Source: Liopterus haemorrhoidalis (Eukaryota; Arthropoda; Insecta; Coleoptera; Dytiscidae). From it: 64,000 nt of DNA. Location of the stretch: NCBI GenBank assembly GCA_963971575.1, contig OZ020611.1, positions 225,114,260 to 225,178,259 of the forward strand. The letters run 5' to 3'. A program made the translations under genes and the position numbers. This document shows, one piece after another, positions 419 to 55,269 of the stretch (position 1 is its first letter; every line of letters starts with the position of its first letter). The notes below the pieces were generated by a model. It saw only the letters and a list, made by a program, of their open reading frames with translations. It did not search any database and was not told where the DNA came from.

Positions 419-603
419 TATATCTGCCGTAGATTTATCATCACAGTTGAATTTAATAGTTATACTTAACGATGTACTGTCATTATCCTTTTCGAGGTTT
501 TTATAACTGTCTTTTACTTTAAATTGAATACTCTTTTTATCCTCAGTGATGACAAACTCGAAACACTCGTTACAAGTATTGGGATTAGGGGCCGACACAA
601 TAC
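419..603 (-). CDS. Gene 1 exon 3: four-Cys module of cadherin-like paralogue
   Basis: Internal exon of a minus-strand gene that continues off the left edge. A TTTCTAG acceptor lies just above 603 and a GTAAGT donor just below 419. Length is 185 nt, entering in phase 1 and leaving in phase 0. It encodes about 61 residues with the pattern TCNECFEF and, near the end, FNCDDK. The homologous exon of gene 3 (44796-44974) has the same phases, a similar length (179 nt) and the same cysteine layout (NCKDCFIF, then FGCQD). The exon is read as the second half of a four-cysteine N-terminal ectodomain module. Later exons, presumably cadherin-like repeats and membrane span, would lie outside the window. 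The homology between the two genes is seen; the function is not known. Confidence 0.72.
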
Positions 604-710
604 CTAGAAATATAAATCTGATATTATGATCCTGATGGAAAAAAAAGTAAAAATAAAAAAATGCAATAATTGCACAATAATAAATACAACTAGAGGCTTG
701 TTGTCTAGAT

Positions 711-2940
711 CAGCGTTTCTCAACCGGGGGGCCGCGAAGTCATACAAGATCGAAACATGAAAATATAATAAAAATGCACATAATCATACAAGATATAAAT
801 TTTATTCATATTTATAAATTCGAGTATATTATATTCAGTGTTGTAATGTATCTAGGTACATTTTAAAATATGTATCTGTATCTGTATCTAGATATTTAAA
901 TCAGTATCTAAGTATCTGTATTTCAGGTACTTTTTTCAAATACTTTCTTATTTTGTCTTTTTCAAGATCTTTTTACAACATATGTCCTTACGATTTTTCA
1001 AGTTGGTAATACATTTAGCATCATTCAGATATTTGAATTTTAAGTTTAAATTAACCAATCAGCGACCAGTAAGTTCTTTCTTGCTTGGTGAGAGTAAAAA
1101 CATGCTTCAGCCATTTTCAGAGCTGGAAATTAACAATTACATTTTATTAAAATTTTATAGATAAAAATAAATTAAATAAATAAATTATAAGTTTGAGAAT
1201 TATGATAAAATACAAGTTCTATACGTAATTAATTAAATTTTGGAAAACATTATTTTATTTTTTATTATTTTTTTAAAATTTTTTATTTAAAAAAAAAAGG
1301 AATAATAAAAGGATATTTTCCAAAATTTAATTAATTATATATAGAACTTGTATTTTATCATAATTCTCAAACTTATAATTTATTTATTTATTTAATTTAT
1401 TTTTATCTATAAAATTTTAATAAAGTGTAATTGTATTTTCAGCTCTGAATAAATTTAAAAAAATAATAAATAAAAAATAAATTAAATAATTTTATTAACA
1501 ACGGTTAAGTAAAACAACTATTAAGTAATTATCTAATCTAAGAATAAGAATTAATTTTATAAATGTGAATTAAATAAAGAAATATAATAAATAAAATTGT
1601 TGTTTTATTTTTGTCATTCTAAATACTCATTTAATAATCAGTAATTTATTAGCGAACAAAAAATTTTCGAGATATCCGCGGAAATTGGATTTTTTTAAAG
1701 ATTACATAGGTATATATTTAGTTAATATTTCTGACACAAAGCTTCAAAGGCTGTTTGTGTTTATTTTAAGAGTAATAATAGTGCATAACTTATTTTTTAT
1801 TGTGAACAAATATATTCCTTGCTCTAGTTATTTCTTTTTTTTGTGGTTTTTTCATTTTTCCGAAAGTATCTTAAAAGTATCTTGAAGTATCTAGATACAT
1901 TTTAAAAAAAAAATGTATCTGTATCTAGATACTTTTTAAAATTTGTATCTGTATCTGCATCTAGATACATTTTTCCTCAAGTATCTGCATCTGTATCTAG
2001 ATATATTTTCAAATGTATCTATTACAACACTGGTTATATTGATATTCATAAAAATATACCTTTCACAACTTAAATAAAATAAATATTCTATTTATTTTTA
2101 TACTTAATATACCTATTTTGACAACTAATTTAAACTACAGGCTATTTCAAATGTTTAAGTTGTCACTAGCTAACTTTATAAATGGGCTTTTACTAAACAA
2201 AATTATTAAAAGCTTCAATTAATCGATAAAAATTACTAGATTTGAAAATCTAGTTCCGCTTAACAAAAGAAACAGACTATAAGTAGACTATATCAAGGTC
2301 AAATAAATTGTATGTGTCGGTTAATGGGTTTCTCTGACAATAGTTCGCGTTGGAGGTACTTCAAGTATTTTTAAGTTGTGCTTTGAAGTACGATTTGAAA
2401 GTGCAATATTTGTTATTATATATTTTTTTTATTTGCTCTCCGAACTACAGGTAACTCAAGAGTAAGGATACGAATGTGTTTAAATTAAAATGGAAGGCAC
2501 TTTGAACACTTGTAAATAAAAATACTTTACTTTCAAGTCGTTATAGGGAATATAATTGTCATTTAAAAATATCACAGTTTTTTTGTCAACCGTAAAAGGT
2601 ATTCAAAAAATGTTTAAGAAATAGTTGTTGAAAAGCTCCATCCAAAGATATCCAATATGACATGCGTTCCCATTTAAAATTTTGAAATTGTCCTTGATAT
2701 CCTGTAATTCCGGGTTTTTCCGGAAAATTTCAATACTACCATTCAATTTTGTGCATAAATTTTAGTTCAAAATTTTCGACGTGTGAGCGACGTGTGAGCA
2801 ACGTCGCCTTTTCGAAAAAACTCGTGTTCCCATTGTCTTGATACACCCTATATATATATATATATATATATATAGGGGGGCCGCCGACAATATTTATATA
2901 ATTTGGGGGGTCCCAGGCCATAAAAGGTTGAGAAGCACTG
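711..2940. mobile_element. Non-autonomous hAT element, 2.2 kb
   Basis: Terminal inverted repeats CAGCGTTTCTCAACC and its partner ending in GGTTGAGAAGCACTG, flanked by an exact 8-bp target duplication GTCTAGAT (703-710 and 2941-2948). This is diagnostic of hAT. No transposase frame remains. A second hAT (836-2032) is inserted inside. A close relative is at 8665-11932; the shared interior runs from 2033 to the AT repeat at about 2850. Confidence 0.9.
836..2032. mobile_element. Nested hAT-type foldback-like element, 1.2 kb
   Basis: Ends CAGTGTTGTAAT and ATTACAACACTG with a near-exact 8-bp duplication ATTATATT / GTTATATT. The empty site is preserved in the relative at 8813. Its ends are built of many copies of GTATCTAGATAC-type words, and its centre (about 1110-1450) is a long imperfect palindrome. 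No coding capacity is seen. A relative occupies 4004-6618. Confidence 0.85.
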
Positions 2941-3199
2941 GTCTAGATGTAATAATCGAGTCTAGAAAATCCCGTGAGTGAATAGTAGCTTCGGCAGGTA
3001 TAACTCAATATTTTGAAAAGTTTGTCATTGAACTTCATTAATTGTCATAGCAAAGGTAACTCTTCGGGAAATCTGGATCTGTTATTGAGGATTGGTATAT
3101 TTTAGAATGGAAACAATACTACCTTTTCCAACACCCGTTATGACCTCTAGTTTTCCACATTTTTTCATCAAGCCGCGTACCAAGATGCAAACACCATTT

Positions 3200-4003
3200 A
3201 CTAAGCCACATATTTACTCGCATTTATTTATTTATTTGTCCCAACTTATAAATCCCAACATCTGATATGCCTTTTTTACAATATTGTTAATATGTACATT
3301 GAATATTAATTTAGAATCCAATGTAACACCTAGATCCCTAATTTCGTTAACATTTGAGATAGGAGTATCATGAATCTTATAATTATAATTTATTACATTT
3401 CTGTTCCTGGTAAATGAGATTTTGAAACATTTAGACAAATTTAATTTTAACTTATTATTCAAACAATATTTCTGTAATTTGTCAACATCACATTGAATAC
3501 TGATACAATCATTTGTGGTTTTACTTCTAAATATTACTTCAAATCATCAGCAAACATTACAAATTTAGAATTAAAAATACACTCAGAAATGTCGTTTATA
3601 AAAATTATAAAAAGCAGAGGTCATAAATGAGACCCCTGTGGAACTCCAGAACTAATCTTGAAGTGAATCCTTTGGTTACGACACACTAAGCTAGCAATAT
3701 ACTAAGATAAAAAGGTGTTGTGCTTAAATTAACCTGACAGTACTCAAATATTTTAGAAAAACCTAAAGAAATTGGATATATCACTTAAAGCTTTTTTTGT
3801 TTATGTACTGGATAGATTTTAGTAATTTCTAATATTTCAAAGAAAATAATACTCAGAAAGTGATAAATTTACTAAGTGTGTCACAGGTATACAACAAGGT
3901 ATTTCAGGGTACTTCATCAGGACCGGATGATTTCTTATTTTTAAGTTTATTTGTAATAGTTATAAGTTCATTTTCAATAAAAGGAAGAGCAAACATGGTC
4001 TGA
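3200..4003 (-). pseudogene. Non-LTR retrotransposon reverse transcriptase, 3' part (relic)
   Basis: Read on the minus strand, the pieces include KNKKSSGPDEVP near 3930, SSGVPQGS and FADDL near 3560-3650, then LNLSKCFKISFTRNRN and VNEIRDLGVTLDSKLIFNVH to about 3232. These are consecutive reverse-transcriptase motifs of a Jockey/CR1-type LINE. Stops and frameshifts break it. The upstream part resumes at 6608-6890 beyond a nested element. Confidence 0.75.
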
Positions 4004-8137: not shown

Positions 8138-8272
8138 CTGTTACTGTATTGTCTACAATAGTCCATGTTTCTATTATTCCAGGTGATCGTGTATCAGATA
8201 AAGGTATAGATTTATATCTCTCCCATTCATCCTTGGTAATTTCTTGAATATTGCATGAACCCGTAAGTGCCA
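8138..8272 (-). CDS. Gene 1 exon 2: N-terminal ectodomain of cadherin-like paralogue
   Basis: Exon of 135 nt, phase 1 in and phase 1 out, with an ATTTTTAG acceptor above and a G/GTAAAT donor below. It encodes about 44 residues containing SCNIQEITKDEW and ending ETWTIVDN. The gene 3 exon 46337-46465 (129 nt, same phases) encodes SNCDVKEVSVQEW and ends ATWTTEN, so the Cys, the E-x-x-x-x-E-W core and the TWT motif are shared. This exon supplies the first of the four conserved cysteines. The intron down to exon 3 is about 7.5 kb and the intron up to exon 1 about 10.6 kb; both are full of transposons. Confidence 0.75.
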
Positions 8273-12149: not shown

Positions 12150-13215
12150 TTACATTTCAATAAGGTCTTCTTCACGCAATGATGCAGCATAATATCGTTC
12201 AACATGGTTTGCATATCCAAGAATATGTTGTTGTGAAATCTCTTGAATTGCCACATTAGCAATGTCTTCCAAATTACGCATTCGAAATTCTGAAATGATT
12301 GGTGCTCGACTGTTAACACGTATATAGTTCAATATGTCATGCATTCTGCTCTGAATATGTCGTTTTACTGATGATTTAAAGGAACTCCACATCAATTCAA
12401 TTGGATTAAGTAGGTAAGAGTACGGAGTAAGACGCACTATTTCTATGTTTTCTCCTGGTCTAAGCACACTCTCAAGATTTGAATGGACAGGTGCGTTATT
12501 AATAATAAATGTTGGACGTTGAATTTATTCATCATCACATGTTCCTATTAACTGACGCAACCATGCTTTGCAGTCTTCCGCTCTGTAAGAACCACGTCGG
12601 TGCTCAAACGCCAAAACGCGTGCGGAACTTACTGCACCAATGCAATGAAGGTTGCTTCCTTTACTTGTCGGTATGACTATTCTTGCTCTACGACCAATTT
12701 TTGACCTATCTTCCTTTCTGCGGCAGTATAGGTTGAAATTAGTTTCGTTAATCCAATTAATGTTCGACCATTCGTTCTGTTTTGCAAAATTTGGTCAAAA
12801 TAATTTCTTCTCTTTTTTTTATTTTCGTTGGAATTCATATTTCCAATTTGTGGCCTAAGAGCTTTGACCGAAAATAATTTACCATCCAGCCAGTTTTTGA
12901 TAGTGTTATGGCAAACACGAACTTGGAATTCGTTATTAACACGATCACATATATTTTTTAATGTTAACGTGCAATCTTCTTCAATTCATCTTACCAATGC
13001 ATCTTCAATTATTGGCGTTTTTTTTTTTTTTTTTGTAGACGCATTACCACTTTTGTTTTTAGGAAGAACTTGCCCTTTTTTATCCATTCATAGGCTGTAC
13101 GTATATTCACACCTAATGCATTTGCTGTTTCTTTCGAATCTTTGTCTTCTTCACAAGCTTTAATAATCCTGGCTCTGTCATTTGACGAAATTTTATTATA
13201 TTTACCACGAGGCAT
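12150..13215 (-). pseudogene. IS630/Tc1-type transposase, inactivated
   Basis: Starts MPRGKYNKISSNDRARIIKA, a helix-turn-helix of the Psq/Tc1 type (residues about 1-50, with SKETANALGVNIRTAYEW). The catalytic core follows in shifted frames: WINETNFNLYC near 12760, FIINNAPVHSNLE near 12490 and NPIELMWSSFK near 12390. The first two positions that are normally Asp (WIDE, DNAP) are Asn here; the Glu is present, 33 residues after the second site. C-terminal part reads to LREEDLIEM. Several frameshifts and a T-run expansion at 13020 break the frame. Confidence 0.8.
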
Positions 13216-18860: not shown

Positions 18861-18930
18861 CATCTGAATACACGGAAGGTATCCAAATTAGAGCAATAAA
18901 ATAACAAAATATGTATTTTTTATTGCCCAT
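18861..18930 (-). CDS. Gene 1 exon 1: signal peptide
   Basis: First coding exon of gene 1: ATG at 18930, 23 codons plus one base, then a GTAAGT donor. It encodes a short basic start (MGNKK), a hydrophobic core (FCYFIALIWI) and a small-residue region ending VYSD, a typical secretory signal peptide. The phase-1 end joins in frame to the phase-1 start of 8138-8272. Gene 3 exon 1 has the same length class (25 codons plus one base) and the same donor. No promoter was identified upstream. Confidence 0.72.
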
Positions 18931-32414: not shown

Positions 32415-32706
32415 CTGAAAAAATGTAGAATTACAGAAAATATCCCAATGTTAATGACAGTCAATAATCCCAGCATAACACATAAGCAGATAACGCCCAA
32501 CATCAACGTTTTATCATTTTTTTTGTAATCCTCATCGAAACCCTTATCATCCATGATTTTAATTAAAAGCAAAGTTTCTTCTTCCGTTAAAAATCCAGCT
32601 GCTTTTATTCTTACGTAAGCTGTAATGTTGTGTAAATCTTCTTTTATTTTTCGGGCCAATGATTTGGCGAGTTTAATATTTGTCCCATTTTCCAGCGACA
32701 AGTACT
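32415..32706 (-). CDS. Gene 2 exon 2: juxtamembrane region and transmembrane segment
   Basis: Exon of 292 nt encoding about 96 residues. It starts after a TTTTTTCAG acceptor and enters in phase 1. The first 65 residues are hydrophilic (SLENGTNIKLAKSLARKI, then ITAYVRIKAAGFLTEEE) with two NxT glycosylation sequons. A strong membrane span follows (LMLGVICLCVMLGLLTVI onward). The open frame stops at a TAA that is part of an AG/GTAAGG donor consensus, so the exon probably splices in phase 2 to a tail exon, as in gene 3. No cadherin repeat is visible. It could be the membrane-proximal part of a cadherin-like protein or an unrelated small type I membrane protein; no family is recognised. Confidence 0.6.
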
Positions 32707-32869: not shown

Positions 32870-33617
32870 CGTGGGATGTTTCCAAAGTTCTGGGAATTTA
32901 GCTATAATTTTTATTATTTTGTTAATTTTCGTCAATATTACAATGTAGTTTTTCAACATAATCTCTATTTAACTGAATACATTTATCCCAACGATAAATT
33001 AATTTTTTAAACCGTCCTCAAAGAACTTTTTCGGTGTCTCCTCAATCCATTTATTCCAACAGCCTTGGCACCCAGCGCGGCGAAACCTTGCTAACGTCCA
33101 AACAATCATGTAAGATGTCATGAACTTGTCGTGTACCTATCCCTAGGCGCACACTAATTTGACGAATAGTCATTCGCCTGTCCTCTTTCAGTAGGTCTTC
33201 GACGACAGTAATGTTTCTTTCATTTACCGACGTGCTTGGGCGCCCACTGCGTGGATCTTCTTCTAGTGATGTTCTACCGGTTTTAAAATGATCGATCCAC
33301 CGATAAACAGTACTTTTGGATTCTGCAGACTCACCAAATACTCCTTGCAGACGCTGAATAATTTCTGATGTTTTCACACCTTCTTTCCACAAAAAGAAAA
33401 TTATTGCTCTTTGAAATTTTGCTGCGTCTTCCATGTTTACAAAAACAGTGCTATGAAAACGCGTCTATATCAGTCGAACACCTAAATCAGACTGAACAAT
33501 ATTGCACTAGATAGTTGCATAAACATGTCAAGACTTGTCTGGCACCAATAACATTGCCTATAAGTTCTGCGTAATTTAATTATAGCACAATTCCCAGAAT
33601 TTAGGAAACATCCCTCG
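32870..33617 (-). mobile_element. Internally deleted mariner element (748 bp)
   Basis: Ends CGTGGGATGTTTCCAAAG and the inverse of CGAGGGATGTTTCCTAAA, TA at 32868-32869 and 33618-33619. It keeps the transposase N-terminus (33051-33434) fused to the last codons (RWDKCIQLNRDYVEKL near 32960-33000). The catalytic middle is missing. It lies in the gene 2 intron. Confidence 0.92.
33051..33434 (-). pseudogene. Mariner transposase, N-terminal DNA-binding part
   Basis: 127-residue frame starting MEDAAKFQRAIIFFLWKEGV, then STVYRWIDHFKTGRTSLEED and PRSGRPSTS, followed by VVEDLLKEDRRMTIRQISVR. These are the two helix-turn-helix motifs and GRPR-like linker of mariner transposases (usual length about 345). 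It stops soon after WVPRLLE where the deletion begins. Confidence 0.88.
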
Positions 33618-35097: not shown

Positions 35098-35203
35098 GTT
35101 CATCAGTATATTCTGTAGATTCGATAGCAGTGTCCACTGAATTGAAGCTCCATGAAATGCAGAGAAATAACAGAATGTAAATAGAAATAATTTTTACACC
35201 CAT
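35098..35203 (-). CDS. Gene 2 exon 1: signal peptide
   Basis: ATG at 35203 followed by MGVKIISIYILLFLCISWSF, a clear signal peptide, then a short acidic stretch (ESTEYTDE). The exon is cut at C/GTAGGT, leaving phase 1; this is the only nearby donor that keeps the next exon (acceptor at 32707-32708) in frame. The phase matches the signal-peptide exons of genes 1 and 3, which supports a common gene plan. A second GT (GTATAA) four bases further would break the frame. Gene 2 sits between gene 3 (upstream) and gene 1 (downstream), all on the same strand. Confidence 0.6.
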
Positions 35204-40687: not shown

Positions 40688-41559
40688 CTTATACATAAAC
40701 AGTATAAAAGAATTATGATAGTAATGGCTAGGAATACTAATCCTGCTGTGATATAGAACCCAATAATACAGTGTTTCAAAATATTATCATCGTCAGTACA
40801 ATCTTTGATAGTAGTAGGTTCAGTAGTAGTTTTGATAGTAGGTTTAGTAGTTGGTTCAGTCTTTTCTTCTTTTTCAATACTGACTAATACAACTGTTTCG
40901 CCTCTTTCTAGAGAATCTGTATCAACTTCTACGAACATGACAACAAAATCATTCTTTTCTTTCATTTTATCACTTAGTTTTGCCTTAACTATAATAGTCA
41001 ATGTTTTAGAGTCTAATTCAAAATAATTCACAAATTGATGATCATCAAACCTTAAAGTGTATTTTGGATTTAGCTTTATGAATTCGTCGTTTAATAAAAT
41101 TTTATCTTTCATTTCAATCTGATCATTTTTATTGTAGAGTTCTTTATGAAGTTGATTTTTGAAAATTGGTGCCTCTCTTATAGCTTCAATATCTACAATA
41201 ACAACCGTTTCTCCATAAGCAGGGCTTCCAGTGACCAAGGCTTTTATATTTAATTCAACATCAGTATATTTTTGTTTTAAACTTTGTGTCAAGGATTTAG
41301 TTACTGTAATCTCTGCAGTATCCTTATTAATTACAAAGTAGTCTTTCAAGTCATCCTTTAAAATTTTCATTGTGTATTGTGGTTTAAGTTTTTCGAATCC
41401 ATCTACCAGTTTTATGACCTCTAATACTTGGAACTTATCGTTTATGTCGTATTTGGCTTTGTACATGGATTTTTCGAATTTTGGATCGGGAATATAACTG
41501 GGCTCTATTATTAAATCAACAAGAGCTGATGTTTGAGGATTTCCTGAGCTTGGATTATC
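40688..41559 (-). CDS. Gene 3 exon 5: two degenerate cadherin-like repeats, Thr stalk, transmembrane segment
   Basis: Exon of 872 nt (290 codons plus two bases), acceptor TTTTTAG above 41559, donor AG/GTGAGT at 40687. It opens with the end of the previous repeat (DNPSSGNPQTSALVDLII), then two units of about 105 residues, each starting P-x-F (DPKFEKSMY; APIFKNQLHKELY) and ending in V-hydrophobic strands (GETVVIVDIEA; GETVVLVSIEKE). Cadherin secondary pattern is visible (QYTMKI, YFVINKDTAEITV; KYTLRF, YFELDSKTLTIIV), but LDRE, DxD and DxNDNxP calcium motifs are missing. A Thr-rich stalk with TEPTT repeats and a membrane span follow (GFYITAGLVFLAITIIILLY). Known: such repeats form adhesive or receptor ectodomains. 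Inferred: a type I membrane protein with little calcium binding. Confidence 0.82.
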
Positions 41560-41855: not shown

Positions 41856-42430
41856 TTATTTCTCAACATAGTCTCCTTTTAGAACTATACAATTCGTCGA
41901 ACGATTCTCCAATTTTTCGATGCCCTCAAAATAGGTCTCTGTTTCAGCGATGACCTCCTCATTCGACCCAAATCTCTTACCACCGAGCCATTTCTTCAAG
42001 TTTGGAAATAAATAATAGTTGCAGGGGCCAAATCTGGCGAATATGGTGGATAAGAAACGCACTTGTGGATCAGTGCGTTGTCCTGTGGAGCAGTAATTTT
42101 TTCTTTGAATAATGTGGCCGTTTTCTTCAAATTGGCGTCGAATCGGTCCAACAGCTCTGCATAATATAAGCACATGATCGTTTTGTCCTTTTTCAGGTAG
42201 TCGAAGTGAATGAAATCGCGCGTATTTCAAATAACTGTGGCCAGGACTTTGTTGACCGATAGACCCACCTTGGTCTTCTTTGGCTTCGATTCGCCAGAAG
42301 CAGTCTACTGTTTCGACTGTTCCTTTTTCTCTGGTGTGTTGTAATGGATTCATGTTTCATCTACGGTTACAAAACGGCGTAAAAAGTCCTTCTTATCGCG
42401 GCTGAACATCGTCAAGCATTCCTTTGAAAG
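41856..42430 (-). pseudogene. Mariner transposase, catalytic part (frameshifted)
   Basis: In shifted frames: VTVDETWIHYNTPEKK (first Asp), APQDNALIHKCV (second Asp), PPYSPDLAP (third Asp, DD34D class), then LENRS and GDYVEK at the C-terminus. All three Asp are present but frameshifts and stops break the protein. Confidence 0.85.
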
Positions 42431-42436: not shown

Positions 42437-43437
42437 GACGAGTTCATCGAAAGTAAATTCATCGAAAATCAATTCATCGAAAATGAGTTTATCGAAAACG
42501 AGTTCACGAAAGCAAATTCATCGAAAATCAATTCAACGAATGATAAATTCATCGAATCGTCAATTCATCGAAAAAAAAATGTTTTGTAAATATTTGAGAG
42601 GAATGCCGAGAGGATCGGAAAGTCAAAAAAGCAGTGGTCAATAAAAGTAGACAGACTAAGAAATAATTGCATAAAAAATTTCTTATGGTTTAAAAAAAAT
42701 ATATTCTTTGTTTCTTTGATTATCCTCAAATATGCACCAAAAATGATCTCATTAAAACTTAATTTAAATTTGCAAAAATTATATATTAAAAATGTGGTGA
42801 CAGATAATACCAATAAATGAAAATTTAAAAAAATGGAAAATGTTTTGAGTAGAGTAATATACAAGTTTACAAAAAAAATTTATATTTTCTATTTGTATGT
42901 ATATACATATAGAATAGTGTATATAAATGAATTTCAGTTTATTTTTGTCTTGTTTCTTTTATATACGTATTTATGTAGTTTATATTTCTTTTGTTCCTTT
43001 ATAAAAATTCCAATTCGACTTACGTAAAATTCGAGTTACCCAAAAGTCGACGGTTCGCATAATTACGTATCTCAGGGGATTACTGTATTATTTATTATAA
43101 TTATTATTAGACATGTTTATATATAAAGAACAAGGGAGATTAAAAATAACAGTGAAAAAATTTAACTTTTAATTTATATTTAAACAGCAACTAACATTAC
43201 AATGGAAAGAAGAAATTAAGAATACATATTAAATTGAAACAGAGCCACAATTAAAAATGCACTTTCAAATATTTACAAAATATTTTTTTTAGATGAATTG
43301 ACGATTCGATGAATTGATCATTTGATGAATTGATTTTCGATGAATTTGCTTTCGATGAACTCGTTTTCGATGAACTCGTTTTTGATGAATTGATTTTCGA
43401 TGAATTTGCTTTCGATGAATTGATTTTCGATGAACTT
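42437..43437. mobile_element. Foldback element with ATTCATCGAAAATCA repeat arms
   Basis: Left arm 42437-42573 contains about eight 15-bp units (AATTCATCGAAAATCA and variants); right arm 43295-43437 contains the inverse (TTTTCGATGAATTGA). The arms are inverse tandem arrays flanking about 720 bp of AT-rich, non-coding DNA. This is the architecture of FB/Galileo-type foldback transposons. The target duplication is unclear. Confidence 0.75.
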
Positions 43438-43439
43438 AC

Positions 43440-43889
43440 CGTGGATCCTTTGAAATGGTCAGACGATCGCGTTTGTTGTCAACTGAGATCAAATTCGGTA
43501 CCCATCTGGCAAAGCTTACTTATTCACAAATATTCATGCAATATGTTGAGCATCCGTTCGGTTGAGATGCCCGCAGCCTCAACTATCTCGCGCTTCGTCA
43601 CTCGTCGATCGTCGATTATCAATCCGTGGATTTTATCAACCATTTCTGGAGTGATAACCTATTTTGGACGGCCTGGACGCTCATCATCAAAAATGCTCTT
43701 ATGACCACGTTTAAATTCAGCTGTCCAAAATTTAATTGTTGATATCGAAGGTGCAGAGTCTCCATAAACATCGTTCAATTCGGTATTGATCTCATCGTTC
43801 GTTTTCTTTTTCAAAAACAAGTATCGAATCACTGCATGATATTCGATTTTATTCATTTTTGAAAAAATGCAAAAGTTGCTCGTTTTCAA
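43440..43889 (-). pseudogene. Mariner transposase, N-terminal part
   Basis: MNKIEYHAVIRYLFLKKKTN, GDSAPSISTIKFWTAEFKRG and DDERPGRPK are the first helix-turn-helix and GRP linker; continuation to about 43440 gives VDKIHGLIIDDRRVTKREIV, the second helix-turn-helix. The start used is the MNKIEY Met rather than the MKTSNF one, as in related mariners. Confidence 0.85.
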
Positions 43890-44110
43890 CGACTGTCAAA
43901 CACAAACATAGATGTTGCAGCTGGTTCAAAATTTTACAGTAGTCATTTGAAGTTTAGGATTTAGGAAAAACAACATTAATTTGATAATAGTAGTGCCATT
44001 TCTTGCCTAGACCGATTACTTTTCAACCGCCCCTCGTATGTACCAGTACCCTCGTCAGGTCTCTGGCTATTAGCGCTGATTAAGGTATATATGGAAAGAA
44101 ACATACTTAC

Positions 44111-44410
44111 AGTTGCTGTTATTTTATATTGTTTCTTCGCTATTGAATTTACTTCAGCTTTAGTTATCAAGATACCTTGAGATTTATGCTCATCTATTTT
44201 CTTTGTTTCAATTATAAATAAATCATCTGGAACTATAGTAAATTTGATATCTTGATCTCCAGGATCTTTATCACTAGCAGCTATGATAAATTCATCCTTC
44301 AGTAATCCTACTTTCAAATCAGTGCCCAACGGCATCGGTAACGTAATGGTGTATTTCGGTTTATCAAATTTTGGTGGGTTGTTGACTTCTTTCGATCCAA
44401 TTTTAATTTT
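44111..44410 (-). CDS. Gene 3 exon 4: cadherin repeat
   Basis: Exact 300-nt exon, phase 0 at both ends, acceptor TGTAACAG above 44410 and donor GTAAGT below 44111. It encodes NNPPKFDKPKYTITLPMP and ASDKDPGDQDIKFTIVPDD, which match the classic cadherin start (P-x-F-x-x-x-x-Y) and the A-x-D-x-D-x-G-x-N type motif; this is the most recognisable cadherin unit of the gene. It ends in ITAT, continued by the next exon with DNPSSGNPQTS, the usual strand-crossing pattern. A mariner element ends only about 70 bp from the donor. Confidence 0.82.
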
Positions 44411-44795: not shown

Positions 44796-44974
44796 CAAAG
44801 AAGCAGTTTTTGTATCTTGACAGCCAAATTCAAGTTCCATAGAAAATGAATATGTTGTTGGATTCTGCATAAATTTTACATATTCGTCAGTTAGTTTGAA
44901 TAAAATATGTGTACCGCTTTTTTCAAAAATGAAACAGTCTTTGCAATTTGCATCATCTTGTTTTGTAGCAACAC
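44796..44974 (-). CDS. Gene 3 exon 3: second half of four-Cys module
   Basis: Exon of 179 nt, acceptor TTTTACAG above 44974, donor GTAAGA below 44796, phase 1 in and phase 0 out. It encodes DANCKDCFIFEKSGTHIL, a central FKLTDEYVKF and FGCQDTKTASL. It aligns with gene 1 exon 419-603 in cysteine spacing and in the F-K-x-x-D-x-Y core. It precedes the first cadherin repeat, so the module is the membrane-distal tip of the ectodomain. Confidence 0.78.
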
Positions 44975-46336: not shown

Positions 46337-46465
46337 TGTCAACATTTTCTGTGGTCCACGTTGCCCTTTGTCCTACTGGGTCAGATGACTTTACATCCAA
46401 AGTTTTTCCTACTTTCCATTCTTGGACAGATACTTCTTTCACGTCACAGTTAGACCCTGGACTCA
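46337..46465 (-). CDS. Gene 3 exon 2: first half of four-Cys module
   Basis: Exon of 129 nt, phase 1 to phase 1, flanked by GTTTTAG and GTAAGT. It reads SPGSNCDVKEVSVQEW, then TLDVKSSDPVGQRATWTTEN. It is homologous to gene 1 exon 8138-8272. Upstream intron 1 (46466-55193) is 8.7 kb and contains the pogo relic with the nested LINE. Confidence 0.75.
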
Positions 46466-47320
46466 CTAAAACCATTAAAAACAAATCATAACATTTTTAT
46501 GGCTTTTGCTACTGATGCAATTAGCCAGGTTAACTTTAATTTTCCGTGTTCAAATTCCATGCCTGAACCGTATGTTTCGAATGCCGATACGGTGCCGAAC
46601 CGTATGTTACCACTACGCTACGGCGGTCGGCATAACATACCATGTTAGCCCAAACATAACGCGATATTTTTTGACCAATTATTTTCTGTGAAAAAATTGA
46701 ATCGCGTTAAATTCTAGGTCTAGGAAATTGGATACAAATAAACAACCCTTCTTATTAGTACGCATATGCCTCCACACCATCATAAGAAAAGTGAAAAAAC
46801 GCTCTTTGAAAGTTATTGAAGTCAACTGGTTACGACAAGTCCAGAATTACTGTTATGCTTGCCGTTATTGCTGATGGACAGAAGCTTCAACTTCGATATA
46901 TTGAAACGTAAAGCAAAGCCCTAAGAAAAGCTGCATCCAAGAATAATTTTTCTGGACCAAGAAAAAGGTTGGATGAATGTGATATGCGGAAAACGGCCAG
47001 GTTCTCTGAGAAAACCTCGTTCCTTAATGCATTTCGAGGCCACCTTAGGTCAGGTGTTAAGGAAGAAATTCAGGTATTTAATTCCGATAGTACCAGGTGC
47101 TATGACACCTCAGTTATAAGTCTTGGATCACAGTTCATATCAGACCTTTGTGGAATACACACGTATTGTTCAGAGCAGTGATATATTAACTATTGTTATC
47201 AGCGTAATCCTCTATTAATTAGTAGATTATAAACTAGGTGTAAATTTCCATTTGTGTACAAGAAAGTGTTGTGTTTTTCTAATATACAGTGTAAAACTCT
47301 ATCAATTTAACTTGGGCACA

Positions 47321-48853
47321 ATGCCCAAAAAGCCCCCTGATGGGGGTGAAACCCCGCCTTCCTTTTCTCAAACTACTCAAGCGTGCCTACAGGCTTTACA
47401 AACAATTTATGATAAAAATGACTCTAACGAAATGGAAATTTCCTACACTATGAACAACCCAGATTCAACAGGATTGAAAAGACGTATGGATTTACCCTTA
47501 GATCAACAACAAAAGTCCAAGCAAATAAATCCTGGTAATCAACAACAATTGTCCACCACAAATGAAACAATAACCAACGATATTACACCATACACCAAAA
47601 ACAGACTGAATCGATATTCGAATGCTGATTCATCGCCATATTATATACTTTTAGAAAACAAGAAAAACGACAAAAATATAGGAAGATTGCACCACATGGC
47701 CATCGGTAAACTCCTATTTACGAAATTTAAAGAGGAATCAAAAGACATCATCAATGTATCAAAAGTAAATTACAGTAGAATTAAAATTGAAACAAAATCG
47801 GCAACAGTCGCTAACAAAATTCTAGATTCGCAGGAACTGATATCTAGCGATATAGTGGCCTATATCCCTGAAATCAAAATGTTTTGGAAAGGAGTGATTA
47901 GACAAGTAGACACGTCAATATCCAACGAAGAACTAAGGCTAGAAGCTGTATCTGAAGTTCAAATTAATGACGTTAACCGCATCTCAAGGAAAATTATATC
48001 GGAATCCAACATCACATTTGAACCAACTCAAACAGTTATTGTAACCTTTAGAGGACAATTTCTTCCCAGTTTTATATCAATATATGGTGCACGATGCAAG
48101 GTAGAGGCCTACGTACATAGAGTCACACAATGCCTGAAATGTTTAAGATTTGGTCATGTTGCGAAATTCTGTAAAAGTTCCCCGAGATGTAGCACATGCG
48201 GCGCGCTTCACCTGTCCGAAAACTGTGACGCAGATAAAGAAAATCCTATATGTATATTCTGCAAAGGCTTACACAAAGCAACTGACAATACATGTCCTGT
48301 ACATAAAGATCAGAGAGAAATAAAAAAATATATGGCCCACAACAACGTAGATTATCAAGAAGCGAAAAAGAACTATAAATCTTATGCTTCGGCAATCACA
48401 AACCCAAGAATAAATGAAAATTCCGCTTTCCCTCCCTTAACCCAACAGAATAGATTTAGTGTACTTAGCCATAGTATGCCAGACGAAGAAAACGCTACGG
48501 AATATACTTCCAACATGACTTTTCGCAGACCCCAATATTTACCTAAACCTCAAATAAGTAACAATACATATCGAGAATCTCAAGTCAATGTATACCCCTA
48601 CAATAACGCAAAAACAACACAATCATCTCAATCTTCATCCCAAGGTTTAATAACCCACAACCCATATCCCCCCCAACACCACCTACGCTCCTCAAATCTA
48701 AACACACTCTCCAATCCAGCGACTACAACCCCTGCAGAACCCGACATCACAACATTATGCAATTTAATTGTTAACATAATAAACCAGTACAATAATAGTT
48801 TCAAAATTAGCTCCTCTGACATCATACAATTATTAAACTCGGCGCGAAAATGA
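47321..48853 (+). CDS. LINE ORF1: nucleic-acid-binding gag-like protein
   Basis: Binds the element's RNA and forms the ribonucleoprotein particle (known for ORF1 proteins of this group). About 510 residues from MPKKPPDGG; this Met is preferred over the in-frame one at 47252 because the leader before it is hydrophobic and lies near the 5' end. Features in order: polar N-terminus, a domain around IKIETKSATVANKIL, then three zinc knuckles (CLKCLRFGHVAKFC; CSTCGALHLSENC; CIFCKGLHKATDNTC) at about residues 265-330, and a Gln/Asn/Pro-rich C-terminus. The stop overlaps the ORF2 start. Confidence 0.92.
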   Translation: MPKKPPDGGETPPSFSQTTQACLQALQTIYDKNDSNEMEISYTMNNPDSTGLKRRMDLPLDQQQKSKQINPGNQQQLSTTNETITNDITPYTKNRLNRYSNADSSPYYILLENKKNDKNIGRLHHMAIGKLLFTKFKEESKDIINVSKVNYSRIKIETKSATVANKILDSQELISSDIVAYIPEIKMFWKGVIRQVDTSISNEELRLEAVSEVQINDVNRISRKIISESNITFEPTQTVIVTFRGQFLPSFISIYGARCKVEAYVHRVTQCLKCLRFGHVAKFCKSSPRCSTCGALHLSENCDADKENPICIFCKGLHKATDNTCPVHKDQREIKKYMAHNNVDYQEAKKNYKSYASAITNPRINENSAFPPLTQQNRFSVLSHSMPDEENATEYTSNMTFRRPQYLPKPQISNNTYRESQVNVYPYNNAKTTQSSQSSSQGLITHNPYPPQHHLRSSNLNTLSNPATTTPAEPDITTLCNLIVNIINQYNNSFKISSSDIIQLLNSARK

Positions 48854-51800
48854 ATTCTTTCAATAATATCCCTTTTAATATTTTTCAATGGAACAGCTGT
48901 TCCATAAAATCCAAAAAGTCCCAACTAGAAAATATCCTTGCATATTACAATATATCCTGTGCTCTAATATCGGAAACATGGCTACTAAACTCAGAAAATT
49001 TCAATATATCCGGATACAACACGATTCGTTGCGATAGATTTGATGGCTATGGCGGATGCTGTATATTGCTTAAAAGAAACATACCGTATAGTATCAACAA
49101 TTTAAATATTCCGAATATTGACACCATACAGATATGCTCAATAACCATACACTTTCAAAATAGGAAATTAGACATCATCTCCTCGTACTGTTCACCTAAG
49201 CACCGCATAAACAGCAATACATGGGATATGATATTTACGCAGTTTTCACACCCGTTTATATTTGGCGGTGATACCAATTGTCACAACATTTCTTGGGGAT
49301 GCAAAAGCGTCGACTTCGAAGGAATAAATTTCAATGACTCCATAAATAACTGTTCCTTAACTTTACTCAATGATGGATCACCCACACTATTTAATAAAGA
49401 AATAGCAGTCGATATATCTGTTTGCTCACCTTCAATTGCTACGTATATAAATTGGACAACAGTTTCCAATACATATGGCTCAAATCATTTCCCTGTATTA
49501 CTAAATTGTCATCTTTATAAAATCAACGACTACATTACCATCCTGCCGAAAATTAAATGGGACATAAACAAAGCGGACTGGACCAATTATTATAATATAG
49601 CAAAAGAATTTACAAGTAGTTACGATATAAACAATTTTGCTCAACTGGACATAACATCAAAATACAATATTTTCCTAAATATTATAAATACAACAGCAGA
49701 TCAAACAATCCCTATAAAACAACCAGTTCACGCTCCGGCCTTCAAACTTCGACCATGGTGGGACAGCGATTGCACCAGCCAACATAAAACCGCCAATGAA
49801 GCATATAAATTATATAAAACACAGATGTCCTTTGAAAATTTTCTCAAATGTAAACAAGAAACCGCGAAATTTAGAAGATTAGTTAAAAACAAGAAAAGAG
49901 AATCTTGGAGAAATTATTGTACCAGCATGAACAAGTACACTCCAGTCAAAGAGGTTTGGGAAAAAGTTAAAATCATTAACAACTCGTACAAAGAATCAAA
50001 TAACAAAAATTGTACTAACACAGATTGGATTGATGAATTTTTCACAAAGCTCACTCCCAGCACATGCGAGGAAAACATAACTCTACCAAACATACATCAA
50101 AACATAAATCATGAACCTCAATCTCCATTCACATTTAATGAACTTCAATACGCCCTTAAAAAAACAACTAATACATCTCCTGGTATTGACGATATCCACT
50201 ACTCTATGTTATCAAATCTGCCTCTCAGCACCAAGACTCTCTTACTAGACATATATAACGATATCTGGATTAACTTCAAAAACATACCCCAATGGTCAGA
50301 AATTATAGTCATACCTATCCCTAAACCAAATAAGGACCCTAATGTTGCAAAATCATATAGACCAATCGCCCTATCAAGCTGTGTAGTAAAAACCTATGAA
50401 AGATTAATAAAGATTCGACTAGAGTGGTGGCTTGAAATGAACAACTGCCTACCGTCATACCAACATGGATTCAGAAGAGGTCACAGCACCATGGACAACC
50501 TTTCAACCCTAGTCACTGATATACAATTAGCGAATACTAATATGGACTACTGTATCGCAATCTATATAGATATTATGGGAGCATATGACCATGTGTCCAG
50601 CAAAATACTGAAAGAAAAATTGCTACTGCTAGGATTACCATCAATTTTCATCATAGCAATCATCAATCTAGTCCAAAAACATAAAATATACATTAAACAC
50701 TGTGGTAAATTACTTGGTCCAAGATTATCTTTTCAAGGCCTACTACAAGGATCAGTTCTGGCTCCCTTGTTGTTTAACGTATACACGACTGACATACAAC
50801 ATTACATGAAACCAGAAATAGGCATAGTCCAGTTCGCAGATGACTTCAGTCTCTATTTTGCACATAAAAAATATAAAGAGGCACGCCACGAGCTAAATAT
50901 TGCATTTAAACAATTCCAAGAATGGACTTTTAATAATGGGCTCAGTATCTCATATGAAAAGACCGTTGCAAGCGTATACACAAGACATCGGTTGTCTCCA
51001 AGCCTAACCTCTATTAAATTAGGCTTCCGCAATATAGAAATAAAGAACGAGGTTAAATTTCTAGGTATCATCATTGACAATAAACTATCCTGGAAACCCC
51101 ATGTAAATTATATTATGAAAAAATGCGAACCACGTATCAATCTTCTTAGGAGCATAACTAGTCTAAATTGGGGAGCTGATCCCAACACATGCTTAATTCT
51201 TTACAACAATCTAATTTTGTCTATTATCGACTATGGTTGCGTTGTCTATGGGTCAGCTACAAAAAATATTCTTCATCCTCTGGAAATATTACAGAACAGA
51301 GCAATTAAGGCAAGTCTTGGAGTAATGCACTCTACACCCACCAATATTTTACTAGCCGAAGCGCATATAATGCCTTTACCTTTACGAAGGAAACTAATAA
51401 CTAGTCGCTTTCTAATAAGTAGATCTAAAGTTATCACCAACATCAAATATGCAAAGTTAGCGGCTGAAGTATTTACACACAAATACTGGACCAAAAAACC
51501 TGTTCCTCCTCTAGCAGATTGTCTGACGTATATAGCGGACATCATAGACACTACTATAGGAAGTTCTCCACCCTGCTATAGGTACCCGTGGCAATTCTCT
51601 CTGCTCAATGATGAATTTAAAGAAGATATTTTTAACTTTAATAATGCAGAAATAACGAATGCAATGTTTCTAAAGAAGATAAACAAGAAATGGCCAAACT
51701 CATGCCACTTGTACACAGATGGCTCAAAAACCAACAACGGAACAGGATGCGCCTTCTATGATGTCACTAATAATATTTCCAAAAAATTTAAAATTGGAAA

Positions 51801-52554
51801 TAACCACTCAGTGTACACCGCAGAATTAATTGCAATATATGAGTGCCTACAGCACCTTCTCCAGCAACCAACACATACTTACTTGTTATTCACCGACAGC
51901 AAGGCAGCAGTTATAAAACTTCGGAAACCCGGATTTGATATAAATACACCTCCTTTAATATACAACATTATAAACACAATCAAAACTCTAATAGAAACTG
52001 GTACGTCAATCACAATAGTTTGGGTAAAAGGTCATGCGCGAATTCACTACAACGAATTGGTAGATTCACTGGCGAAAGTAGCAACCATTTCAGGAAACGA
52101 TACAGCATATCCACTTACTCCGAAGGATTGTAATATTCTCATCAAAAAAAGAATTATAGAAATATGGGAAAAAGATTATAAACAATCCACTCTAATCAAA
52201 GGCATACACTTCGGATACCTTCAGCCAACTCTGCCTAGCTGTCCCTGGTTCAAGACTTACAACTCTAGGAAGCTGATATCAACAATGTGCCGAATACGCT
52301 TTAATCACCATTTTCTTCCTTCGCACCTTCACAGAATTAAAATGTCAGCAAACCCCTATTGTAATTGTGACCAAAATATAGTTTGTGACTTGAACCATAT
52401 TCTGTTTAACTGTCCTCAGTCACAACATTTACGAGACAGATTTTTAAAATCGCTTAATATGCCACTCCCGTTAGATGTAAGATGTATCCTATCCAATATG
52501 GACAAGATACCTATTATATATGAATATATTGAAAATATTAAAATTAAAATATAA
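48850..52554 (+). CDS. LINE ORF2: endonuclease, reverse transcriptase, RNase H
   Basis: Enzyme for target-primed reverse transcription; 1234 residues, intact. Apurinic-type endonuclease at about 5-225 (QWNSCSIKSKK, SETW, GGDTNCHNISWG near 138, SNHFPVLLN). Reverse transcriptase at about 480-760 (YRPIALSSCVVKTYERL, HGFRRGHSTMDNL, IYIDIMGAYDHV, GLLQGSVLAPLLFN, catalytic FADD at about 661-664, FLGIIIDNKLSW). RNase H at about 950-1080 (YTDGSKTNNGTG near 953, AELIAIYECL, FTDSKAAV, WVKGHARIHYNELVDSLAK). A C-terminal cysteine motif (CNCDQNIVCDLNHILFNC) near 1175. All key residues look present. It starts within the ORF1 stop (ATGA), so translation probably uses reinitiation. Confidence 0.95.
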   Translation: MNSFNNIPFNIFQWNSCSIKSKKSQLENILAYYNISCALISETWLLNSENFNISGYNTIRCDRFDGYGGCCILLKRNIPYSINNLNIPNIDTIQICSITIHFQNRKLDIISSYCSPKHRINSNTWDMIFTQFSHPFIFGGDTNCHNISWGCKSVDFEGINFNDSINNCSLTLLNDGSPTLFNKEIAVDISVCSPSIATYINWTTVSNTYGSNHFPVLLNCHLYKINDYITILPKIKWDINKADWTNYYNIAKEFTSSYDINNFAQLDITSKYNIFLNIINTTADQTIPIKQPVHAPAFKLRPWWDSDCTSQHKTANEAYKLYKTQMSFENFLKCKQETAKFRRLVKNKKRESWRNYCTSMNKYTPVKEVWEKVKIINNSYKESNNKNCTNTDWIDEFFTKLTPSTCEENITLPNIHQNINHEPQSPFTFNELQYALKKTTNTSPGIDDIHYSMLSNLPLSTKTLLLDIYNDIWINFKNIPQWSEIIVIPIPKPNKDPNVAKSYRPIALSSCVVKTYERLIKIRLEWWLEMNNCLPSYQHGFRRGHSTMDNLSTLVTDIQLANTNMDYCIAIYIDIMGAYDHVSSKILKEKLLLLGLPSIFIIAIINLVQKHKIYIKHCGKLLGPRLSFQGLLQGSVLAPLLFNVYTTDIQHYMKPEIGIVQFADDFSLYFAHKKYKEARHELNIAFKQFQEWTFNNGLSISYEKTVASVYTRHRLSPSLTSIKLGFRNIEIKNEVKFLGIIIDNKLSWKPHVNYIMKKCEPRINLLRSITSLNWGADPNTCLILYNNLILSIIDYGCVVYGSATKNILHPLEILQNRAIKASLGVMHSTPTNILLAEAHIMPLPLRRKLITSRFLISRSKVITNIKYAKLAAEVFTHKYWTKKPVPPLADCLTYIADIIDTTIGSSPPCYRYPWQFSLLNDEFKEDIFNFNNAEITNAMFLKKINKKWPNSCHLYTDGSKTNNGTGCAFYDVTNNISKKFKIGNNHSVYTAELIAIYECLQHLLQQPTHTYLLFTDSKAAVIKLRKPGFDINTPPLIYNIINTIKTLIETGTSITIVWVKGHARIHYNELVDSLAKVATISGNDTAYPLTPKDCNILIKKRIIEIWEKDYKQSTLIKGIHFGYLQPTLPSCPWFKTYNSRKLISTMCRIRFNHHFLPSHLHRIKMSANPYCNCDQNIVCDLNHILFNCPQSQHLRDRFLKSLNMPLPLDVRCILSNMDKIPIIYEYIENIKIKI

Positions 52555-53041: not shown

Positions 53042-53374
53042 ATCGATAGTGATGGTTTTAAGAAATGCTGCATTTCAAATAATTTAAATGGGTCTGAAGA
53101 TGATATTTTGTGGGAGACTGAAAGCAAGCTAACGATACCGATGCGATTTTCGGTTAACTTTTTTTTTCAAAATATCTTCATGAAAAATTTTGGTGTCGCG
53201 TTAAATTCGGGGTCGCGTTATATTCGGGGTCGCGTTATATTCGGGCCAATACGGCAATTAAAATATTAATATATTTGCGTGAGGAAACGGCTGAAGAGTA
53301 TATAGGAATAAGGCAATATATCAGTATATCGAGTAAATATTTGAAAAGAAAAAAACTAGTTGGTTGCGAACAAA

Positions 53375-53560
53375 TATTCGAGGTATGATCAAAAAGATCG
53401 TGCAATTTTTTAATTTACGAAACAATATTTATTCATCAATTTTTATATTGTCTCCTTCAAATTAGTCCTCTGCGGATATAATGAACTTATGCCACCATAT
53501 ATTCCAGTTTTCAAAACACTTCTGAAACGCATATTTTGGTATAACATATATATATAACAT
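53375..53560 (-). pseudogene. Mariner transposase C-terminal end
   Basis: Minus strand reads AFQKCFENWNIWWHKFIISA, ED, one stop, then FEGDNIKIDE: the mariner C-terminal signature. It is followed by a terminal-repeat-like TTGCACGATCTTTTTGATCA. The rest is missing. Confidence 0.75.
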
Positions 53561-53699
53561 ATATAATATAGAATTATTATTCTCTGTTTAAATCTCATTT
53601 TAAAAAAATGTATCTTAGGGAGCAATGGGAGTGGGCATCTTCTGAAATTGCAATATCTCACTCTTTATTTGAGTCAGCTGTTATTAAATACTCTAGCAG

Positions 53700-53728
53700 A
53701 CCCGTTGCCAACAACGTTGGCAAACTGA
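53700..53728. repeat. CCGTTGCCAAC word, inverse at 58470-58489
   Basis: CCCGTTGCCAACAACGTTGG is itself palindromic, and its inverse (TTGCCAACACAGTTGGCAAC) stands beside the mariner at 58494. The rest of the flanks does not match, so these may be the ends of one dispersed element or separate insertions. Confidence 0.35.
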
Positions 53729-54074
53729 TATCCAGAGTTGGGCAAATAGCAATCAAACTAATGATTGAGGATTGAGATTAAAAATTTAATTTCAAAACTT
53801 GATTAATGAGTAAGGGACATCACTCATAATTAGGGTCCGGCAAAAATATGCAACGGTACTTTAGTTAGGTGTTTTTTGATAAAAACGGCACTTGTGTTAT
53901 CTGTAAAAATAAAATGTAATTATATATATTTGTAATGTGCCCTGCTGACAAATAGTGTAGCGTATAAAAATTTAATATCTTATCAAAATCTGACCAATGG
54001 CAAAGGAGTGACCGGAATTACCTATCTCGGATATAATCCCAAAATAATGAGGTATCATTATTAATACAAGAATT

Positions 54075-54318
54075 GCCAACGGAGTGGCCGAGCGCATTGA
54101 GTAGTGCAGTTTAGACTGGAGGTCTGGACTGGGCGGTCGGTGGTTCGAGCCTCCTTCGTTGGTGATATTATTCGGGCGAGAATAATATGTTTACATTAAT
54201 CCCAATTTCACAATCATTCACCCCTCATCCAGGTGTAGGAGCTCGCCCCCTGGCATCGGCGATTAGCCTCGTTGCAGAAATAGGCCGATGTAAAATAAAA
54301 AAATAAATGAAATAAGAT
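54075..54318 (+). mobile_element. tRNA-derived SINE (244 bp)
   Basis: The first 90 bp resemble a class II (Ser/Leu-like) tRNA: GCCAACG pairs with CGTTGGT, A-box GTGGCCGAGCGCATTGAG, an anticodon-like stem with loop CTGGAGG (GGA), and B-box GGTTCGAGCC. The T stem has a mismatch and one extra base. A non-tRNA body (GGCATCGGCGATTAGCCTCG) and an AAATAAAAAAATAAATG tail follow. The 7-bp duplication AAGAATT flanks both ends (54068-54074, 54319-54325). Confidence 0.85.
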
Positions 54319-54325
54319 AAGAATT

Positions 54326-55193
54326 CATTGCGGTACAAGTGTTTTATTCTTTTGTTTTTTGTTGGTTTTTTGTTAAAATCAAGTTTAAAATAGCACGCCT
54401 ATGGCAAAAGTACCGTTGAATATTTTTACCTGTCTCTACTCATAATGCAGTTATTCACAATGGTAACTAAATTAATTATTTACTCACTGTCATGATTAAA
54501 TTTTTAGTTATGATTGAAACTAAAATCAGGATTGAGATTTGATTTTTTCACTCTCAATGGTCATTGGAATTTAGTATTTATACATTGTAGACATCTGACG
54601 CAGAATTAATTTGTGAAAAATTTAAGTGATATATTTTACAATTATATATAGGCCAATGATGGTAAAAGAAGAAATCTTTTATTTAAATCGAAAACGGTAG
54701 ATTTTGGGTGGCTGAGAAATCATTTATCCTTTGCGCACACCTCGAAAATATCTAGGTTGGTCAATATGGTCGGTAGACTAATGCCCAATACAACAATATA
54801 TTTAAATACCTAGGACCGGGTATGGTTTACTTATATTAATTTTATTTTTCAATAAAAGTATTAACGTCTAGTTGCACTAGTTTTACTTAAATTTTAAGCA
54901 TTCATTGAATCAAATTCAACAAAATTTCGTAGCAACGCATTGGGCTGCTAGAGATATGTTTGTGATTTAAGGAAAGCTGGTGAAACTAAGCATAAGATAA
55001 TTAAAACTATAAATAGTCATGGACAAGAACTCTATCAAAAACCATAAAGAAAAGACACAAGAAACGAAGGTTTAGGTGTCGATAGTTCCACTTTTACTGT
55101 ATAGTGGCACTTTTTAATCAAAATTTGTTTGGCCACTTATTTTAAAAAACACAATTCAAAAATATTAGTTAATATTATACATATGTAACTTAC
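54326..55193. other. Intron sequence just below gene 3 exon 1, nothing recognised
   Basis: AT-rich, no coding frame or terminal repeats seen. It is the first 870 bp of gene 3 intron 1. Confidence 0.5.
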
Positions 55194-55269
55194 CTTCACA
55201 GATAGCTATTGGTACTAATTGCAAAAGTGAAACTAATTGCAAAAAATATAATACTTTTTTTGTATACAT
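55194..55269 (-). CDS. Gene 3 exon 1: signal peptide
   Basis: ATG at 55269, then 25 codons plus one base and a GTAAGT donor. The peptide is MYTKKVLYFLQLVSLLQLVP then IAICE: a basic start, a long leucine-rich core and a small-residue cleavage region. The phase-1 end joins to exon 46337-46465 to form a Val codon, in the frame of SPGSNC. The start is chosen because it is the first ATG before the hydrophobic core and has the same layout as gene 1. Total predicted gene 3 product is about 540 residues if the tail exon is right. Confidence 0.75.

What the first reader, a model, noticed from the sequence alone, without database searches (positions are those of the whole stretch)
419..55269. Tandem cluster of cadherin-like genes sharing a four-cysteine N-terminal module
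Genes 1 and 3 have the same exon plan (signal peptide, phase 1; exon 2, phase 1-1; exon 3, phase 1-0) and the same four cysteines (C...; CxxC; C) although the proteins are otherwise strongly diverged. The order signal peptide, four-Cys module, cadherin repeats, membrane span is not one I can match to a named insect cadherin. Fast divergence and tandem copies suggest a recognition or gut-surface role, which is inference.
Basis: partly seen in the sequence, partly recalled or inferred. Interest (0 to 1): 0.75.

Follow-up and report, generated by a model that had tools for sequence, protein, structure and literature searches.

The report
Fast-evolving cadherin-like gene cluster
A beetle-like insect genome carries a small cluster of fast-changing, cadherin-like surface-protein genes that share a four-cysteine head, and one of them has a stalk built from a freshly multiplied two-exon unit.

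Summary
Genes 1 and 3 share signal peptide, four-cysteine module (exons 2+3) and intron phases. With the host genome I extended gene 1 leftwards and found gene 4 to the right, with the same plan and cysteines. Gene 2 is only a signal-peptide exon plus half a repeat with a membrane span. Exon 4 is a divergent cadherin (EC) repeat (profile P 1.8e-10 against the genome's own cadherins; 0 of 100 shuffles). Stalk repeats are EC-like (P 3.8e-7; 0 of 100) but lack DRE-type motifs (0 of 10; 17 of 21 true ECs). Stalk length differs: 2 repeats (gene 3), 3 then stop (gene 4), at least 14 (gene 1). Gene 1 carries 13 two-exon units, all exons phase 1-1; seven lie in a 485-bp tandem array (pN/pS 0.31). The module matches no Pfam, NCBIfam, PDB or EC profile above controls. 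The protein database holds insects, yet returned no relative of gene 3. I call it an apparently lineage-restricted, atypical cadherin-superfamily family with an unassigned N-terminal module; a head-on-stalk recognition role is inference. No expression data, usable fold model or cytoplasmic tail were available.

The parts
18861..18930 (-). gene 1 exon 1, signal peptide, phase-1 donor
   Evidence: one of 3 SP-exon hits in 264 kb
8138..8272 (-). gene 1 exon 2 (phase 1-1), first Cys of the module
419..603 (-). gene 1 exon 3 (phase 1-0), CxxC and last Cys of the module; exons 4-31 of the model lie left of the window, to about window coordinate -28029
35098..35203 (-). gene 2 putative signal-peptide exon, phase-1 donor GTAGGT
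   Evidence: read; not among the hits of the SP scan, whose donor rule it does not meet
32415..32706 (-). gene 2 exon: B half of a stalk repeat + membrane span, phase 1 in, phase 2 out
   Evidence: read; leave-one-out B HMM i-E 1e-6
55194..55269 (-). gene 3 exon 1, signal peptide, phase-1 donor
46337..46465 (-). gene 3 exon 2 (phase 1-1), first Cys of the module
44796..44974 (-). gene 3 exon 3 (phase 1-0), CxxC and last Cys of the module
44111..44410 (-). gene 3 exon 4 (phase 0-0), divergent EC repeat keeping a DxD motif
40688..41559 (-). gene 3 exon 5 (phase 0-2): end of the EC repeat, two degenerate EC-like stalk repeats, T-rich stalk, two Cys, membrane span; tail exon not found

Best explanation
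An apparently lineage-restricted family of atypical cadherin-superfamily surface proteins. Shown from sequence: signal peptide, a conserved four-cysteine N-terminal module of about 110 residues, one EC repeat that keeps DxD but not DRE, then a variable number of degenerate EC-like repeats without DRE-type motifs, ending in a membrane span (genes 2, 3) or in a stop codon (gene 4). Inferred: the four-Cys module is a disulfide-stabilised head that does the binding; the repeats are a stalk that no longer needs calcium and sets reach; the genes arose by tandem duplication and diverged fast; gene 1's stalk grew by unequal crossing-over of a 485-bp two-exon unit whose phase-1-1 exons can be added, lost or skipped without breaking the frame; gene 4 is a secreted form. 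Biological role most likely adhesion or recognition at an epithelial or gamete surface; which one is not known.
For: Open exons, splice sites and phases; gene 4 with the same plan; four Cys, E-W and a second W invariant in 3 of 3 genes; exon 4 against the EC profile P 1.8e-10 and repeats P 3.8e-7, 0 of 100 column shuffles each; exon-4 profile against PDB: 15 of 17 rows, among them the 13 best, are cadherins (one bears an uninformative name), best E 0.0014; Pfam Cadherin E 3.4e-5 on gene 3, below cut-off; DRE-like motif 17 of 21 true EC, 0 of 3 exon 4, 0 of 10 repeats; exon 5 weakly matches a true cadherin exon of this genome on C14 (E 0.06, same place as a PF00028 match); gene 1 model 31 exons, 1804 aa, 0 stops; array 485 bp x 7.5, 94% matches; pN/pS 0.31 and exons more alike than introns; 14 of 14 genome-wide matches of the B exon lie in gene 1.
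Against: Pfam's Cadherin score is under its gathering cut-off and only 2 of 10 single repeats show it at E up to 1; none of the 150 scored PF00028 matches of this genome (of 236 candidates) lies in the cluster. The repeat profile does not find cadherins significantly in PDB: a DARPin chain (E 0.24) ranks above cadherin-23 (E 0.31). The repeats and exon 4 do not match each other (P 0.016 and 0.047). The module shows no cadherin signal (10 of 100 shuffles reach its score). AlphaFold models were unusable (pLDDT 38 and 51). Splice sites of gene 1 were placed by eye and motif, two donors are weak (GTTAGT, GTTATA). No transcript evidence; tail exons not found. Function is inference.
Confidence: 0.6

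Rival explanations
1. The module is simply a first EC repeat that has drifted beyond recognition and gained disulfides, as some long cadherins have a disulfide in their first repeat (recalled); nothing new at domain level.
For: It is EC-sized (113-118 aa) and runs straight into an N-x-P-P-x-F linker in genes 3 and 4 (sequences); gene 1's linker is different.
Against: Profile-profile comparison with the genome's own EC repeats gives a score that 10 of 100 shuffles reach locally and 53 of 100 globally; no Pfam hit in 3 of 3 members.
Confidence: 0.35
2. The module is a reduced Eph-receptor-like ligand-binding jellyroll fused to a cadherin stalk.
For: Of 17 PDB rows with E up to 10, 7 are Eph ligand-binding domains (6 EphB2, 1 EphA3), best E 0.3, aligning C-x(3)-E-x(4)-W and the later Cys.
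Against: The reversed decoy of the same alignment gets a better E (0.076); no Pfam hit in 3 of 3 members. The Eph search of this genome did not complete.
Confidence: 0.05
3. The cluster is decaying: pseudogene remains of an old cadherin, exon relics amid transposons.
For: Gene 2 is a stub; transposon pieces sit in the introns; a two-repeat exon lies alone at C1:136.66 Mb, where one of the two matches runs past the open frame over 3 TAA and no other exon was recognised in 30 kb.
Against: Gene 1 (31 exons) and gene 3 (5 exons) are open throughout with splice sites in place, and gene 4's exons read open; array pN/pS 0.31; exons better conserved than introns.
Confidence: 0.1
4. It is a highly diverged copy of the insect midgut cadherin (BtR1/Cad1) type.
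For: Insect, cadherin-like, type-I topology in gene 3; beetle Cad1 genes have long introns, perhaps from TEs (PMC8956072, passages seen).
Against: BtR1 type is described there as up to twelve EC repeats, most with calcium sites, plus MPED; here one DxD-bearing EC plus 2, 3 or at least 14 repeats without DRE, and a head module. No BtR1 sequence was compared directly.
Confidence: 0.05

Closest known systems
Cadherin superfamily EC repeat (PF00028)
   Same: exon 4 and stalk repeats align end to end with EC repeats of the same genome
   Different: scores below Pfam cut-off; DRE-like motif in 0 of 3 exon-4 copies and 0 of 10 repeats
Insect midgut cadherin BtR1/Cad1 (as described in PMC8956072, passages seen)
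   Same: signal peptide, EC-type repeats, membrane span; long introns
   Different: repeat type, four-Cys head, tandem-exon array, a paralogue without membrane span; no direct sequence comparison made
Eph receptor ligand-binding domain
   Same: a weak C/E/W pattern
   Different: not above the decoy; many PDB constructs in the lists are 170-190 aa, the module has 113-118
Abalone VERL-type egg coat repeats (analogy only; PMC3567151, listing and abstract start seen)
   Same: fast-evolving surface protein with tandem ectodomain repeats (VERL details recalled)
   Different: unrelated fold (recalled); no evidence of a gamete role here

Membership tests
Cadherin superfamily | EC repeat fold or profile | tested here: met
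   by profile only: exon 4 P 1.8e-10, repeats P 3.8e-7, 0 of 100 shuffles; exon 4 against PDB cadherins E 0.0014, repeats not significant there; fold not confirmed
Cadherin superfamily | Pfam Cadherin above gathering score | tested here: not met
   24.6 bits against 28.8
Cadherin superfamily | calcium-binding motifs DxD, DRE, DxNDN | tested here: not met
   DxD anywhere in 3 of 3 exon 4 and 4 of 10 repeats; DRE-like in 0 of 13, against 21 of 21 and 17 of 21 true EC. The 21 were cut out by their DxND motif, so they are calcium-type by choice. DxNDN not counted
Classical cadherin | catenin-binding cytoplasmic tail | not testable with these tools
   tail exons after the phase-2 donor not found
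Insect BtR1/Cad1 | up to twelve EC repeats, most with calcium sites | tested here: not met
   repeats lack DRE-like motifs; gene 1 has one EC + 14 repeats; gene 3's count (1 + 2) alone would not exclude it
Insect BtR1/Cad1 | membrane-proximal domain (MPED) | not tested
   no MPED sequence compared
Eph ligand-binding domain | profile match above decoy | tested here: not met
   E 0.3 against decoy 0.076; Pfam 0 of 3

The most novel reading that the evidence does not exclude
The four-Cys module is a new extracellular domain family, and gene 1 is a length-variable molecular stalk: its stock of interchangeable 485-bp, phase-symmetric two-exon units changes between individuals or by splicing, tuning reach or avidity of the head in a fast-evolving recognition system of beetles.
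Probability: 0.3. Interest if true: 0.72.

Novelty: new variant of a known kind. Interest (0 to 1): 0.5.

Why it matters
It suggests the cadherin fold used, apparently without most of its calcium chemistry, as a modular stalk that one gene has recently lengthened by tandem exon duplication, under a conserved but unassigned four-cysteine head. If expressed, it is a compact natural case for asking how fast-evolving surface proteins get new reach and binding heads, and it is a surface-protein family that standard domain searches miss because it falls below their cut-offs.

Tried and rejected
Protein database with gene 3 (none at E 0.01 or better of 7919 candidates) and its exon 5 (none at E 1 or better of 3365): no hit; viral contigs with exon 5: none. 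The dachsous control shows that insects are in that database, so these negatives point to fast divergence or restriction, within limits: candidates must share 5-letter words and be 0.55-1.75 times the query's length, so long named cadherins could not appear. AlphaFold on exon 5 alone (pLDDT 38) and on one repeat with two rows (pLDDT 51, pTM 0.30) failed; no fold search was run. Eph resemblance rejected by the reversed decoy. Other Pfam hits on single repeats with E 0.01 or worse (DUF3137, Bac_thur_toxin and others) taken as noise. A membrane-span exon at window coordinate about -57.5 kb looks like gene 3's TM exon but enters in phase 2, while the last candidate stalk exon (about -35.0 kb) leaves in phase 1; not assigned (the TM HMM contained it, so that hit is circular). 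The stray module match at C1:39.83 Mb (E 3.65) was not followed. Literature; among the rows listed (1 to 15 per search, titles and abstract starts; one search had 128 papers) none named such a family. I saw passages of PMC8956072 and one passage of PMC2447487, and listings of the rest; the searches were for comparison only.
Full report
What is in the window. All coding exons of this finding lie on the minus strand. Their N-termini align at 25% over 113 positions, E 3e-11 for a one-sequence search. Pfam sees only a sub-threshold Cadherin match in gene 3 (24.6 bits, cut-off 28.8) and nothing in gene 1's N-terminus at E up to 1.

The host genome. The window is G000:C1:225114260-225178259 of a 1.02-Gb assembly. 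I took 100 kb on each side. Negative numbers below are bases left of window base 1. The genome's own dachsous exon matches insect proteins, with best identity 96% to unnamed contigs; the first named row is Aromia moschata at 89%, and a cockroach follows at 86% (5403 hits, 120 listed). The source is an insect and probably a beetle, by inference from one gene.

Gene 4. At 79930-79861 lies a signal-peptide exon, then exon 2 near 78036-77911, exon 3 near 75604-75437, exon 4 near 72935-72645 and exon 5 near 69.7-68.7 kb. Phases read are 1-1, 1-0, 0-0 for exons 2 to 4, as in gene 3. Exon 3 was found by an HMM that had only genes 1 and 3 in it (i-E 5.7e-5). Exon 5 holds three stalk repeats and ends in a stop; the two-sequence TM HMM gave no good hit between it and gene 3, so gene 4 is predicted to be secreted. 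A scan of the 264 kb on both strands for signal-peptide exons gave 3 hits, the three genes' first exons, and none on the plus strand.

Gene 1 is much longer than the window shows. Exon 4 is at -7000 to -7311 and exon 5 at -10092 to -10488, followed by 13 pairs of exons: A (144 nt each) and B (189 nt in 8, 186 nt in 5). The 31-exon model, 18930 to -28029, reads 1804 residues with no stop; 30 of 30 acceptors are AG and 31 of 31 donors GT. I placed the boundaries on such sites, so the point is that each unit has them at the same spot; two donors are weak. All 26 A and B exons begin and end in phase 1. A further B fragment lies at -28.6 kb (i-E 9.7e-4). TRF reports a direct tandem array, period 485 bp, 7.5 copies, 94% matches. 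Over the 21 pairs of 7 units, pS is 0.071 and pN 0.022; exons A and B (mean identity 96% and 97%, 21 pairs each) are more alike than introns (91%, 21 pairs; 94%, 15 pairs). A genome-wide search with one B exon gave 14 matches: the 13 B exons and gene 1 exon 5. The 3' end of gene 1 is not settled.

Gene 2. I found only a signal-peptide exon (35203-35098, phase 1 out) and one exon (32706-32415, phase 1 in, 2 out) made of a B-type half repeat (leave-one-out i-E 1e-6) and a membrane span. The HMMs gave no module, EC or full repeat between them; a Mos1-type transposase piece sits there. It is a stub or a very short paralogue.

Elsewhere. Gene 3's exon 4 has 3 matches in the whole genome: genes 1, 3 and 4. 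Exon 5 of gene 3 has 7: itself, two in gene 4, one in gene 1, two at C1:136658689-136659447 and a weak one (E 0.06) on a true cadherin exon of C14. The C1:136.66 Mb copy is two repeats in one open frame of 245 aa; one match runs on over 3 TAA. In the 30 kb read there no other exon scored convincingly (best an exon-2 shape at i-E 0.1). The module search gave 5 matches: two from gene 3 itself, gene 1 exon 3 (E 1.44), gene 4 exon 2 (E 3.5) and a stray at 39.83 Mb (E 3.65). The E-values are weak, but two of the three non-self hits fall on the predicted exons. These genome searches score only the best candidates, so counts are lower bounds.

Is it cadherin? I built an EC profile from 21 repeats, cut by their DxND motif out of open frames of L001-L008. 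Exon 4 (3 sequences) matches it with P 1.8e-10 and the stalk repeats (10 sequences) with P 3.8e-7, both end to end; 0 of 100 column shuffles came near either. Exon 4 and the repeats do not match each other (P 0.016 to 0.047). Against PDB the exon-4 profile hits protocadherins and cadherin-23 (15 of 17 rows are cadherins, best E 0.0014); the repeat profile reaches nothing significant (a DARPin chain E 0.24, cadherin-23 E 0.31). Pfam Cadherin shows in 2 of 10 single repeats, best E 1.2e-4. Motifs: DxD 21 of 21 in EC, 3 of 3 in exon 4, 4 of 10 in repeats; DRE-like 17 of 21, 0 of 3, 0 of 10. The cluster is not among the 150 scored PF00028 matches of the genome.

What is the module? Three members, 28% and 26% identical to the first, with four Cys, E-W and a second W invariant. 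Pfam 0 of 3, NCBIfam 0 of 3. Against EC its score lies inside the shuffles (10 of 100 local, 53 of 100 global). The best PDB hit, the Eph ligand-binding domain (E 0.3), is beaten by the reversed decoy (E 0.076). It is unassigned; that it is a drifted first EC repeat remains possible, given its size and the linker that follows.

How it probably works (inference). A disulfide-bonded head is carried on a stalk of EC-like repeats that has lost most calcium sites. Head and stalk are anchored in the membrane in gene 3, secreted in gene 4, and held on a stalk of at least 14 repeats in gene 1. Symmetric phases let units be gained, lost or skipped in frame. Fast divergence (the protein database holds close insect relatives for dachsous, yet returned none for gene 3) fits a recognition or arms-race role, but expression was not testable. 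Structure prediction failed.

Noticed in passing
window 47219-52554 (+): Two-ORF non-LTR retrotransposon in gene 3 intron 1: ORF1 with zinc-knuckle-like CxxC motifs (read by eye; no Pfam hit at E 0.001), ORF2 with endonuclease, RT and RNase H.
   Followed up: partly
window 33054-33464 (-), 43527-43895 (-), 41859-42356 (-), 58558-58836 (-): Mos1/mariner-type pieces: the first matches HTH_48 of Mos1, the second resembles the first, and the last two resemble each other.
   Followed up: partly
window 12153-12524 (-): Transposase piece; DDE_3 E 7e-6 just under cut-off.
   Followed up: no
window 42443-42578 and 43287-43436; L011 5132-5294 and 6292-6439: Nearly the same 15-bp minisatellite (TTCATCGAAAATCAA type and its complement) lies beside the mariner-like pieces in gene 3 intron 4 and recurs among gene 1's exons left of the window.
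   Followed up: no
L014 about 2400-2547, window coordinate about -57453 to -57600 (-): An exon with C-x5-C and a membrane span with a phase-2 donor, like gene 3's TM exon, but with a phase-2 acceptor; may be gene 1's last span exon or another gene.
   Followed up: partly
G000:C1:136658689-136659447 (-), L036: A lone open exon with two stalk repeats 88 Mb from the cluster; no other family exon recognised in the 30 kb read.
   Followed up: partly
G000:C13, C14: Many of the 150 scored PF00028 matches crowd on C13 and C14, including frames of 1799 and 1767 aa; L005 is dachsous by its database hits.
   Followed up: no
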